Shown here piece by piece: positions 6,263-12,001 of a stretch of DNA of 15,546 bases. The notes under the pieces are model-generated. The model searched no databases and was not told the origin of the DNA. It worked only from the letters and a program-made list of their open reading frames with translations. A program made the position numbers and the translations under genes. Origin of the DNA: Chloroflexota bacterium (GTDB lineage: Bacteria > Chloroflexota > Anaerolineae > Promineifilales > Promineifilaceae); assembly GCA_024223125.1 (NCBI GenBank), contig JAAEOP010000727.1, positions 1 through 15,546 of the forward strand, read 5' to 3'. Numbering within the stretch: position 1 is the stretch's first letter; the number at the start of each line of letters is the position of its first letter.

Positions 6263-6484
6263 TTGGATGGTCATGTTCCCGAACTGTATTGGGAATCAAC
6301 TTACGCCATAGCCCTGGCTTTAATAACAAATTACCCCAATCACAATCCCGAAGATGTTGGCTTACAAGAGTTGGCTGACCTCGTTGAATCTTTACCTGGT
6401 TTCAGCGATGACCCAGCGATGCTCACTGAGCGAATTTTACTCGATATTCAAAATGTTTGGTATGAGGAGGCGCCTAACCTATGA
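6263..6484 (+). CDS. iscX: IscX-family Fe-S cluster assembly protein
   Basis: 73 residues, close to the family length (66 in E. coli). The order LYWES, then YPNHNPEDVGLQEL, then LPGFSDDP, then TERILLDIQNVWYEEA mirrors E. coli IscX (LKW, YPDLDP, DFDDDP, EKIL, VWLDEA). IscX is an acidic winged-helix protein that binds iron and the cysteine desulfurase IscS and tunes Fe-S cluster synthesis. Translation starts at TTG. Its stop overlaps the nuoB ATG by 4 bases (ATGA), so it is translationally coupled to the complex I genes. No iscS or iscU is in view. The position at the head of a nuo cluster suggests a role in supplying or gating Fe-S clusters for complex I; that is inference. The family call is by motif pattern only. 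Confidence 0.82.
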   Translation: MDGHVPELYWESTYAIALALITNYPNHNPEDVGLQELADLVESLPGFSDDPAMLTERILLDIQNVWYEEAPNL

Positions 6485-7170
6485 CTGAGATAGGTGTGGA
6501 TTCACCCGATATTGTTGTTCCTGATGAATTACAAGGCAGTGTGTTTATTACGAACATTGCTAAATTACTAGACCCCGTTTACAACTGGGGCCGGCGCAAT
6601 TCTGTCTGGCCGATGGTATTTGGCCTGGCTTGCTGCGCCATTGAAATGATTTGCACGGCCGCCAGTCGTTATGATTTGGCCCGTTTTGGTATGGAAGTGT
6701 TCCGGGCTACCCCGCGCCAATCTGACCTGATGATTATTTCCGGTACAGTGACGAAGAAGATGGTTCCCACCATTGTTCGCCTGTATAACCAGATGCCAGA
6801 ACCCCGTTACGTTTTAAGTATGGGCGCTTGCGCTTCTGGCGGCGGCCCCTTCAAAGAAGGGTACAATGTGGTGGACGGCATTGATAAATTCCTCCCCGTA
6901 GATGTGTATGTGCCTGGCTGCCCACCCACGCCGCAAGCCCTCATCAATGGTCTGATTGCGCTGCAAGAAAAGATTGACCAACAATCTATTGCCACCGTGC
7001 CCTGGTATACAAAAGGCGATCCCACGGCCGACGATGTGGTTCCCATTCCAGTGTTAGGACCAGACCTGGTGGATTTGCGTCAGGTAAAGGTTATCCGCGC
7101 GGAAGCGGCCGCAGCAGAAGTAGAAAAAATGGCAGAGAAGGAACCGGAAACGGCCGTTGCCGAATCGTAA
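6481..7170 (+). CDS. nuoB: NADH-quinone oxidoreductase subunit B
   Basis: 229 residues. This is the peripheral-arm subunit carrying 4Fe-4S cluster N2, which hands electrons to quinone. The four cluster ligands are present: tandem C51-C52 in FGLACCAIEM, C117 in MGACASGGG and C147 in VPGCPPTPQAL. The quinone-pocket segment RYDLARFGMEVFRATPRQSD is also intact. The first about 20 residues are a variable acidic lead. The C-terminus after about residue 175 is an Ala/Glu-rich extension (AEAAAAEVEKMAEKEPE) beyond the conserved core. It overlaps iscX by 4 bases and is followed 29 bases later by nuoCD. No nuoA precedes it, so subunit A must be encoded elsewhere. Confidence 0.97.
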   Translation: MTEIGVDSPDIVVPDELQGSVFITNIAKLLDPVYNWGRRNSVWPMVFGLACCAIEMICTAASRYDLARFGMEVFRATPRQSDLMIISGTVTKKMVPTIVRLYNQMPEPRYVLSMGACASGGGPFKEGYNVVDGIDKFLPVDVYVPGCPPTPQALINGLIALQEKIDQQSIATVPWYTKGDPTADDVVPIPVLGPDLVDLRQVKVIRAEAAAAEVEKMAEKEPETAVAES

Positions 7171-7199
7171 CAGCCCAGCCCCTGAAAGAAGGATTCCCC

Positions 7200-10011: not shown

Positions 10012-11082
10012 ATGTTCGGAAAAAAGAAATCTGATGGGGTAACGGAAGATGCGGTTATGGCCGCTTTGTCTACCGTTATTGAGCCAGAATTACATCGTGA
10101 TCTTGTCTCCCTCAATATGATTCGCAACCTGGAAATTGAAGGAGAAAGCATCAGTTTTACCATTATGCTTACGACGCCTGCCTGCCCCCTCAAAGGGAAG
10201 ATGGAAGCAGATGCGCGGGCGGCTTTGGCCCAGGTCAATGGCATCGGCCGTATCACTGTCAATTGGGATGCCAACGTCCCCACTCATGCCCGGTTAGCTG
10301 ACCAATTTGGCGGCAACTTTCGCAATACGATTGCCGTTTCCAGTGGCAAAGGGGGCGTAGGTAAATCCACCATTGCCGTTAACCTGGCGATTGCGTTGGC
10401 AAAAGAAGGGGCCACTGTGGGTTTGTTGGACGCTGATATTCTAGGGCCAAATGTGCCCATGATGATGGGTGTGCCCCAAATGCCGCCACCCCAAAACCAC
10501 AAAATGATTCCGGCGCAGCGACATGGTGTGAAGTTTATCTCCATGGGCTTTTTGGTAAAGTCAGACCAGCCCCTAATCTGGCGTGGGCCGATGTTGCACG
10601 GCGCCATCAGTCAACTGTTGGCTGATGTGAATTGGGGCCAGCTTGATTATTTAATTGTAGACTTGCCGCCGGGTACAGGCGACGCTCAATTGACTCTGGC
10701 TCAGGTTTTGCCGCTGACTGGGGCGTTGATAATTACGCAGCCGATGCAGGTAGCGGCCGCTGATGCCCTACGTGGTTTGAAGATGTTTGAAAAGCTGGAT
10801 GTACCGATTTTGGGCGTCATCGAAAATATGAGTGGTGCAATTTTTGGTACGGGCGCCGGTGAAAAACTGGCCGCCGATCATGGCGCCGATTTTCTGGGGT
10901 CTGTGCCCATGGATGTTAATATCCGGGTTGGCGGTGACAGCGGTGAACCAGTAGTTGTTGCCTATCCCGATTCGGAAGCGGCCGTCGCGCTGCGAGAAAT
11001 TACCCAAAAAGTTGCTGCTCATGTCAGTGTGGTGACACTCAATAATCAGACAAACTTTATTCCGATTCAGATGGTCGGGTAA
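10012..11082 (+). CDS. mrp: Mrp/NBP35-family Fe-S carrier P-loop ATPase, lacking CxxC
   Basis: 356 residues. The N-terminal MIP18/DUF59 domain (about 10-90) has the conserved Cys in TTPACPLKG (C58). The P-loop domain has the deviant Walker A of the MinD/Mrp class, SSGKGGVGKST (110-120), then LLDADILGPNVPMMMG, WRGPMLHGAI and the Walker-B-like LIVDLPPGTGD. Mrp/ApbC/NBP35 proteins dimerise and carry a bridging 4Fe-4S cluster to target apoproteins; the mitochondrial member Ind1/NUBPL assembles complex I. Odd feature: after VIENMS (269-274) the usual insertion with the cluster-binding CPxC is missing and the sequence goes straight to GAIFGTGAGEK, with no frameshift. A strong ribosome site AGGGAAGG precedes ATG 10012. 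It is followed after 13 bases by the PSP1 gene. Confidence 0.93.
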   Translation: MFGKKKSDGVTEDAVMAALSTVIEPELHRDLVSLNMIRNLEIEGESISFTIMLTTPACPLKGKMEADARAALAQVNGIGRITVNWDANVPTHARLADQFGGNFRNTIAVSSGKGGVGKSTIAVNLAIALAKEGATVGLLDADILGPNVPMMMGVPQMPPPQNHKMIPAQRHGVKFISMGFLVKSDQPLIWRGPMLHGAISQLLADVNWGQLDYLIVDLPPGTGDAQLTLAQVLPLTGALIITQPMQVAAADALRGLKMFEKLDVPILGVIENMSGAIFGTGAGEKLAADHGADFLGSVPMDVNIRVGGDSGEPVVVAYPDSEAAVALREITQKVAAHVSVVTLNNQTNFIPIQMVG

Positions 11083-11095
11083 TGGAGCAATATTT

Positions 11096-12001
11096 ATGAC
11101 CACGATATCAAATGAAAAAACAGCCATTGTGGGGATTCGATTTCAAAAATTGGGCAAGTTGTATCATTTTCAGGTGAACCCTCGTGTTGATGTGGACGCT
11201 GGTGATTATGCGGTTGTAGGAACGCAGCGCGGTCGTCAGTTGGGACAGGTTATTGCTTTCATAGACCCGGAGCAGGTACACCGACGTAAAGGAATACGTT
11301 CCATCGAACGCAAAGCAACCCCGCGTGATCTGGTGATGAAGCAGTTGTGGGAATCAAAGGAGTTGGACGCCTTGATACGCTGTCGGGAAAAAGCGGCCGA
11401 ACTGAGTGTGCGCGATGCTAAGTTTGTAAAAGCAGAATACAGTTTTGACGGTTCCTGGCTGACGTTTCATTATGCCACCGAAAACAAAAAGTTGAATATA
11501 CGGCCGCTACAAAACGCGCTCTCCCAATCTTTTCAAATCAAAATAGAAATGCGATCCATCGGCCCAAGAGATGTGGCCAAAATAATGGGTGGTTATGGCG
11601 CTTGTGGCGCGCCCCGCTGCTGTTCCACTTTTCTGACAGAATTCAGCCCCGTCTCTATTCGTATGGCTAAGGCACAAGGTATCTCTCTTAGTCCGCAAGA
11701 AATTACAGGGATGTGCGGCCGTTTGCGCTGCTGCCTGGTGTATGAATATGAACAATATATGGAGGCCAAGAAAACATTACCCCATGTTGGCAAACGGATT
11801 GGCACACCGCATGGCGAAGGCAAAGTGAGGGATGTGCGCGTCCTGCGAGACTCTGTTATTGTGATCGTGAATGGGGAGCGGCATGAAGTATTCCGCCATG
11901 AATTTGAGCCGCTGGCTGAGTTAGAAGCATTGCAAAAGAAGGCCGAAAAAGGTTGTTCTAAACATGAAGGCGGCGGTTGTGACTGTGGCGCGAAGAATTA
12001 G
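11096..12001 (+). CDS. ricT: PSP1-domain protein, RicT (YaaT)-like
   Basis: 301 residues. The N-terminus (FQKLGKLYHFQVNP, then GDYAVVGTQRGRQLGQV) is followed by the PSP1 core with its cysteine motifs: C170, C175, C176 in GACGAPRCCSTFL and C207, C212, C213 in GMCGRLRCCLVYE. The C-terminal part GTPHGEGKVRDV forms the terminal beta domain. A further Cys cluster (C287, C295, C297) ends the protein. In Bacillus subtilis RicT joins RicA and RicF in a complex that holds 4Fe-4S clusters and affects RNase Y processing, competence and sporulation; in other phyla the partner proteins are often absent, as here. The GGAG ribosome site and the 13-base gap put it in the mrp operon. Its position close to metG recalls the Firmicutes order holB-yaaT-yabA-metS. 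Confidence 0.92.
   Translation: MTTISNEKTAIVGIRFQKLGKLYHFQVNPRVDVDAGDYAVVGTQRGRQLGQVIAFIDPEQVHRRKGIRSIERKATPRDLVMKQLWESKELDALIRCREKAAELSVRDAKFVKAEYSFDGSWLTFHYATENKKLNIRPLQNALSQSFQIKIEMRSIGPRDVAKIMGGYGACGAPRCCSTFLTEFSPVSIRMAKAQGISLSPQEITGMCGRLRCCLVYEYEQYMEAKKTLPHVGKRIGTPHGEGKVRDVRVLRDSVIVIVNGERHEVFRHEFEPLAELEALQKKAEKGCSKHEGGGCDCGAKN

What the first reader, a model, noticed from the sequence alone, without database searches (positions are those of the whole stretch)
6263..12001. Possible complex I Fe-S maturation locus: iscX-nuoB-nuoCD-nuoI followed by mrp-ricT
Seen: five consecutive same-strand proteins that bind or handle Fe-S clusters or iron by their motifs (IscX, NuoB, NuoI, Mrp with DUF59, RicT-like), with iscX and nuoB coupled by an ATGA overlap. 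Known: mitochondrial Ind1/NUBPL, an Mrp homologue, is needed for complex I Fe-S assembly; IscX modulates IscS; the B. subtilis Ric complex carries 4Fe-4S clusters. Inference: the subunits that carry N2 and N6a/b are encoded together with dedicated assembly or quality-control factors, as a bacterial counterpart of the Ind1 pathway.
Basis: partly seen in the sequence, partly recalled or inferred. Interest (0 to 1): 0.7.

Follow-up and report, generated by a model that had tools for sequence, protein, structure and literature searches.

The report
Iron-sulfur helper genes beside complex I
In one group of Chloroflexota bacteria, genes for iron-sulfur cluster helper proteins are kept beside the genes for the two iron-sulfur subunits of a second, split respiratory complex I, which suggests that this enzyme may have its own assembly or quality-control crew.

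Summary
In detail: window 6263-12001 encodes IscX, NuoB, a NuoC-NuoD fusion, NuoI, an Mrp/ApbC-type ATPase and RicT on the + strand, then an HD-domain protein. The arrangement is conserved in relatives. Among loci long enough to judge, IscX lies directly before nuoB in 55 of 77, Mrp follows nuoI in 47 of 57 and RicT follows Mrp in 30 of 46. In 400 Chloroflexota genomes, IscX occurs in 31, each time directly upstream of this nuoB. HscB is absent and SUF present in 21 of 21 related genomes tested. The nuoBCDI set appears to belong to a second, split '2M' complex I; two related genomes read also carry a canonical nuo operon. Some relatives add an ErpA-type carrier, a SufR-like regulator and an undescribed four-cysteine protein. 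I favour a dedicated maturation or quality-control module; there is no biochemical evidence.

The parts
6263..6484 (+). iscX (TTG start; 73 aa, acidic, pI about 4.05)
   Evidence: PF04384 and TIGR03412 above cut-off; profile of relatives matches E. coli IscX 1uj8/2bzt; pI
6481..7170 (+). nuoB of the window type (N2 cluster subunit), starts inside the iscX stop (ATGA)
   Evidence: NCBIfam NuoB families; Cys51, 52, 117 and 147 invariant in 29 sequences; overlap
7200..9032 (+). nuoCD fusion
   Evidence: PF00329 and PF00346 in one frame
9085..9780 (+). nuoI (two 4Fe-4S motifs, N6a/N6b subunit)
   Evidence: Fer4 domains and NuoI families
10012..11082 (+). mrp/apbC-type P-loop ATPase with N-terminal DUF59 and no CXXC
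   Evidence: PF10609, PF01883; ENMSGAIFGTGAG in place of the CXXC loop
11096..12001 (+). ricT (PSP1 domain), cysteines spaced CX4CCX30CX4CC
   Evidence: NF041131; alignment
12015..12614 (+). HD-domain protein, 13 nt after ricT; conserved mainly in close relatives
   Evidence: PF01966; 13 of 14 close loci long enough to judge, 13 of 30 overall

Best explanation
The locus encodes the peripheral Q-module (NuoB, NuoCD, NuoI) of a second, split complex I of the '2M' type, together with a dedicated set of iron-sulfur helper proteins. Proposed working (inferred): the general SUF machinery makes the clusters. IscX, whose gene overlaps nuoB, regulates sulfur or iron supply at the cysteine desulfurase, or holds nascent apo-NuoB. 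The Mrp ATPase acts as an ATP-driven chaperone or targeting factor on apo-NuoB/NuoI rather than as a classical CXXC carrier. RicT, with its own 4Fe-4S ligands, senses cluster status or tunes the stability of the messenger. In some relatives an ErpA-type carrier delivers clusters and a SufR-like regulator couples transcription to cluster supply. Shown: gene content, conservation, IscX only beside this nuoB in the Chloroflexota sampled, absence of HscB and presence of SUF in 21 genomes, a split second complex I in relatives, no CXXC. Inferred: every functional step.
For: IscX in 13 of 181 and 31 of 400 Chloroflexota genomes (the 13 are among the 31), each directly upstream of nuoB on the same strand: 13 of 13, 30 of 30 loci plus G377. 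All 13 fall in the 20 of 181 genomes with window-type NuoB. An in-frame nuoB start overlapping iscX is available in 44 of 56 pairs (26 as ATGA), within 30 nt in 10, farther in 2. Mrp after nuoI in 47 of 57 loci, RicT after Mrp in 30 of 46. HscB in 0 of 21, SufB/D in 21 of 21, an IscS-like desulfurase in 18 of 18. Two or more NuoB in 20 of 20 window-type genomes, two or three NuoH in 18 of 18 tested. Membrane module A-H-J-K-L-M1-M2-N apart from nuoBCDI, without E, F or G hits, in 7 of 9 second-NuoH regions fetched. A-type carrier (ErpA in the member tested) in 11 loci, SufR-like regulator in 26, four-Cys protein in 20 of 80 loci. Print: in Chloroflexi 2M complex I nuoBCDI is separated and nuoCD fused (passages of PMC7117926).
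Against: No biochemical or expression data. All evidence comes from one phylum and probably one arrangement inherited vertically, so counts are not independent. IscX is not directly before nuoB in 22 of 77 loci, RicT not directly after Mrp in 16 of 46. Of the 20 window-type genomes Mrp lies directly after nuoI in 15 and some 3 kb beyond it in G181; in G149, G037, G125 and G085 it is elsewhere, and in G125 and G085 the window-type nuo genes adjoin canonical ones instead. The Mrp lacks CXXC, against a carrier role. A 231-nt gap with a promoter-like match separates nuoI from mrp, so mrp-ricT-HD may be a second transcript. The window's own genome is not held, so its membrane module and other nuo genes were not seen.
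Confidence: 0.6

Rival explanations
1. IscX (and perhaps the four-Cys protein of relatives) is not an assembly factor but a permanent accessory subunit of the 2M complex I, an iron-holding or electron-input subunit, comparable to the frataxin-like subunit Nqo15 of Thermus complex I (recalled, not checked in any call).
For: IscX was found only beside this nuoB and its gene often overlaps it; it is acidic and keeps the DD and W positions of E. coli IscX. The 2M membrane modules read have no NuoE, F or G hit beside them, so an input partner is missing there.
Against: An IscS-like desulfurase, the known type of IscX partner, is present in 18 of 18 genomes tested. IscX is absent from several genomes with window-type NuoB such as G001. 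A subunit role would not explain Mrp, RicT, the A-type carrier and the SufR-like gene nearby.
Confidence: 0.15
2. A SUF/SufR-type Fe-S stress regulon: the helpers and nuoBCDI are clustered because all respond to cluster supply, not because the helpers serve this enzyme in particular.
For: SufR-like regulator on the opposite strand upstream in 26 of 80 loci, with three conserved Cys; A-type carrier in 11. Mrp is the only strong Mrp in G001, so it probably serves other clients too.
Against: The suf genes listed are not within 20 kb of this cluster (closest seen G109, about 23 kb). No IscX, Mrp or RicT hit around the two canonical nuo operons read. IscX was never found away from nuoB.
Confidence: 0.2
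3. A conserved but functionally loose housekeeping neighbourhood: ricT and mrp are old chromosomal neighbours of metG and replication genes, and nuoBCDI settled beside them.
For: metG lies 115 nt beyond the HD gene in the window; mrp and ricT stay together without nuo genes beside them in G149 and G165. That mrp sits by metG in E. coli and ricT near holB and metG in Bacillus is recalled.
Against: Flanking genes turn over while the core stays. Mrp follows nuoI in 47 of 57 loci. It does not explain why IscX is only there.
Confidence: 0.05

Closest known systems
2M complex I of Chloroflexi (Chadwick et al. 2018, seen only as cited in passages of PMC7117926)
   Same: nuoBCDI separated from the membrane operon, nuoCD fused, nuoL-M1-M2-N order in relatives
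   Different: The passages seen do not mention IscX, Mrp, RicT, ErpA or a SufR-like gene beside nuoBCDI; Chadwick et al. itself was not held
E. coli isc operon with IscX
   Same: IscX protein family
   Different: E. coli iscX is the last isc gene; here iscX precedes nuoB, in genomes of which 21 of 21 tested lack HscB
Mitochondrial Ind1/NUBPL and bacterial ApbC/Mrp
   Same: P-loop NTPase of the same Pfam family, here encoded beside complex I genes
   Different: No CXXC in the window protein; DUF59 domain present; no functional evidence
Bacillus subtilis RicT of the Ric/Y complex
   Same: NF041131 family, identical cysteine spacing CX4CCX30CX4CC in the window protein
   Different: Encoded beside mrp and nuo genes; RicA and RicF not looked for

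Membership tests
IscX (YfhJ) | Match to the family models above curated cut-off | tested here: met
   PF04384 55.2 bits (cut-off 25), TIGR03412 54.8 (cut-off 40.4); relatives' profile hits 1uj8 and 2bzt
IscX (YfhJ) | Encoded in an isc operon with HscB | tested here: not met
   31 of 31 beside nuoB instead; HscB absent in 21 of 21 genomes. HscA and IscU were not searched
IscX (YfhJ) | Binds the cysteine desulfurase IscS and iron | not testable with these tools
   An IscS-like desulfurase gene is present in 18 of 18 genomes, below the IscS equivalog cut-off
Mrp/ApbC/Ind1 cluster carriers | Deviant Walker A GKGGVGKS/T | tested here: met
   GKGGVGKS in the window protein
Mrp/ApbC/Ind1 cluster carriers | CXXC bridging a 4Fe-4S cluster, reported essential in vivo (PMC6345978, passages) | tested here: not met
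   Absent in the window protein and in 50 of 52 Mrp rows, window included (one non-Mrp row, L067, dropped); 0 of 15 nuo-linked Mrp
RicT | NF041131 match and CX4CCX30CX4CC | tested here: met
   Cys170, 175, 176, 207, 212, 213; spacing from passages of PMC6751060. 11 of 18 aligned rows have CX5CC at the first site
RicT | Works with RicA and RicF | not tested
   no search made
2M complex I | Separate nuoBCDI with fused nuoCD | tested here: met
   Window and relatives; description in PMC7117926 passages
2M complex I | Second NuoM in the membrane module | tested here: inconclusive
   Met in 7 of 9 second-NuoH regions of related genomes (L134 and L152 not); the window's own genome is not held
SufR (gene in relatives, not in the window) | NCBIfam SufR equivalog cut-off | tested here: not met
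   TIGR02702 30.4 bits against 178.8 (one member of 26); CX12C plus a third Cys in 25 of 26
ErpA (gene in relatives, not in the window) | NF010147 cut-off | tested here: met
   118.2 bits against 117 for the L067 member, the only one of 11 tested with NCBIfam

The most novel reading that the evidence does not exclude
IscX has been recruited in this phylum as a private partner of one enzyme: an iron-dependent gatekeeper or even a subunit of the NuoB module of a 2M complex I that has no NuoEFG of its own beside it. The CXXC-less Mrp plus the four-Cys protein would form a new kind of cluster-insertion device in which the ATPase moves the client and another protein supplies the cluster.
Probability: 0.2. 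Interest if true: 0.85.

Novelty: new variant of a known kind. Interest (0 to 1): 0.62.

Why it matters
[quoted passage not shown] A lineage in which IscX, as far as sampled, exists only next to nuoB and without HscB separates IscX from the ISC machine and offers a genetic test of its client. The same loci put an Mrp without CXXC, a RicT and an undescribed four-cysteine protein on the list of candidate complex I assembly factors, and suggest that two complex I enzymes in one cell might be matured differently.
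Full report
Observation. Gene content was checked with Pfam and NCBIfam. Reading the + strand from 6263, the window encodes IscX, NuoB, a NuoC-NuoD fusion, NuoI, an Mrp/ApbC-type ATPase with DUF59, RicT and an HD-domain protein. Neighbours are a GNAT protein and DnaE upstream and MetG downstream, on the - strand. iscX and nuoB share ATGA. The other gaps are 29 nt (nuoB-nuoCD), 52 nt (nuoCD-nuoI), 231 nt (nuoI-mrp), 13 nt (mrp-ricT) and 13 nt (ricT-HD) (coordinates). 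The 231-nt gap holds the best-scoring promoter-like match of the stretch, but the scan found 13 such sites against 10.7 expected, so mrp-ricT-HD may or may not be a second transcript.

Conservation. The window's genome is not held. A scan of genome contigs with its NuoB kept the best 80 loci, nearly all Chloroflexota MAGs by title, with best-segment identity 63-92%. Searching their ORFs with profiles and counting only loci long enough to judge gave: IscX directly before nuoB in 55 of 77, Mrp within 1 kb after nuoI in 47 of 57, RicT within 500 nt after Mrp in 30 of 46, HD after RicT in 13 of 30. In the 27 closest loci the numbers are 25 of 26, 20 of 21, 14 of 19 and 13 of 14. The misses are listed (L001 has IscX 3.3 kb upstream). 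Several loci are close relatives of each other, so these are not independent events. Families farther out turn over: leaving aside what I judged to be overlap artefacts of the core genes, the next most frequent neighbours occur in 26 of 80 loci or fewer.

IscX test not biased by NuoB. I searched whole Chloroflexota genomes with IscX itself. PF04384 found it in 13 of 181 genomes, and in 13 of 13 the gene is followed by nuoB and nuoCD. A profile of the relatives found it in 31 of 400 genomes, one copy each; the 30 loci returned and G377, fetched by hand, all have IscX directly before nuoB. The two draws overlap: the 13 are among the 31. In the 181 genomes, all 13 carriers lie among the 20 whose best NuoB scores at least 349 bits with my NuoB profile; that cut was chosen by a gap in the scores, and relatedness is ignored. 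Of 23 genomes chosen because IscX was not seen at their locus, 22 have none anywhere. HscB is absent in 21 of 21 genomes tested, SufB/D present in 21 of 21, and an IscS-like desulfurase present in 18 of 18, none over the IscS equivalog cut-off. HscA and IscU were not searched. So here IscX works outside an HscB-containing ISC system.

Which complex I. All 20 genomes with window-type NuoB have a further NuoB match, and 18 of 18 tested have two or three NuoH. In the stretches fetched, G001 and G117 have a canonical operon read from nuoA to nuoL (L138) and to a nuoM-like gene (L139), with no IscX, Mrp or RicT hit around it. A second membrane module nuoA-H-J-K-L-M1-M2-N stands elsewhere, with no hit to NuoE, F or G, in 7 of 9 second-NuoH regions; L134 and L152 are less complete. 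Subunit names there follow gene order and similarity as I judged them; NCBIfam was run only on the NuoH and second NuoM of L142 and the canonical NuoB of L138. This matches the 2M complex I described for Chloroflexi, with nuoBCDI split off and nuoCD fused, which I saw only in passages of PMC7117926 citing Chadwick et al. 2018 (not held). Chloroflexus aurantiacus is also reported to have two complex I clusters, one loosely arranged with two nuoM and no nuoG (passages of PMC3150298). NuoF-family genes exist elsewhere in the genomes, so the 2M enzyme could borrow an input module. In G125 and G085 the window-type nuo genes lie next to canonical nuo genes and have neither IscX nor Mrp beside them, so the arrangement is not universal among window-type sets.

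Mrp. Of the 53 rows one (L067) is not an Mrp; of the other 52, window included, 50 have no CXXC anywhere; L066 and L080 have it. Of 30 Mrps returned by the genome search, 15 lie beside nuoI and none has CXXC; of the 15 others 9 have it. But 19 of 59 further Mrps fetched from other places also lack a Cys pair at that site, so the loss is a wider feature and may simply follow the clade. The motif is reported essential in vivo and ligates the bridging cluster (passages of PMC6345978; of PMC8593673). This weighs against a simple Ind1-like carrier. Of 170 genomes with an Mrp match at E 1e-30, 154 show one; of the five genomes, G002 and G004 have extra strong Mrps, one of them (L087) with CXXC. In the listings, both truncated, I saw by eye no genome outside the 20 with Mrp and a NuoB within 20 kb of each other (the nearest was G015, about 25 kb).

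RicT. The window protein has exactly CX4CCX30CX4CC, the spacing given for Bacillus RicT, where four of these Cys ligate a 4Fe-4S cluster and the protein acts in RNA maturation (passages of PMC6751060; alignment). RicT was found in 106 of 181 genomes.

Further partners in relatives, not in the window. Family c14, in 26 of 80 loci, is an ArsR-type regulator on the opposite strand upstream; 25 of 26 have CX12C followed by a third Cys, as in SufR-type sensors (this likeness is recalled), but the member tested is far below the SufR cut-off. Family c31, in 11 loci, is an A-type carrier, also on the opposite strand; the member tested passes the ErpA cut-off narrowly. Family c19, in 20 loci after nuoI and before mrp where mrp is in the locus, is a protein of about 110 residues with C-x2-C-x10-C-x2-C invariant; no Pfam or NCBIfam match, 661 homologues reported, helical model with pLDDT 93.5, no clear solved relative.

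Interpretation. The most economical reading is a maturation and quality-control set dedicated to the Q-module of the 2M complex I. Shown: gene content, order, conservation, IscX only beside this nuoB among the Chloroflexota sampled, the SUF background and the split second complex in relatives. Inferred: that the proteins act on NuoB and NuoI, how IscX works without HscB, what a CXXC-less Mrp does, and that RicT takes part at all. Rivals are an accessory-subunit role for IscX, a SufR regulon without specific clients, and a neutral housekeeping neighbourhood. I found no paper on IscX or Mrp beside nuo genes in ten searches of an open-licence library, seen as listings.

Noticed in passing
L042:6771-7100 and 19 other loci: Undescribed family of about 110 aa with invariant CxxC-x10-CxxC between nuoI and mrp; no Pfam match, 661 homologues, confident helical AlphaFold model.
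   Followed up: partly
L074:9271-10014 (-) and 25 other loci: SufR-like ArsR-type regulator with three conserved Cys, on the opposite strand upstream of iscX or nuoB.
   Followed up: partly
L067:9017-9679 (-) and 10 other loci: A-type carrier gene (ErpA in the member tested) on the opposite strand upstream of iscX or nuoB.
   Followed up: partly
L148 (G125) and L149 (G085): Window-type nuoCD and nuoI lie directly beside canonical nuoA-B-C-D genes, a possible older or secondary arrangement.
   Followed up: no
window 661-1292 (-): HTH protein and ParE-like toxin pair, a likely type II toxin-antitoxin module.
   Followed up: no
window 283-648 (+): SUI1/eIF1-like protein (PF01253).
   Followed up: no
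window 14521-15216 (-): Protein with a sub-threshold EVE-domain match beside metG.
   Followed up: no
L135:11263-11955 (-), similar in L136, L137, L141, L153: Protein without Pfam match conserved next to nuoA of the 2M membrane module.
   Followed up: no
L142:1467-2762 (-): In G037, where ricT is not beside nuoBCDI, ricT lies about 6 kb from nuoA of the 2M membrane module.
   Followed up: no
L010:8374-9693 (-) and 20 other loci: tRNA-queuosine mannosyltransferase family gene (one member scanned) on the opposite strand upstream of iscX in close relatives; GNAT and DnaE lie there in the window.
   Followed up: no
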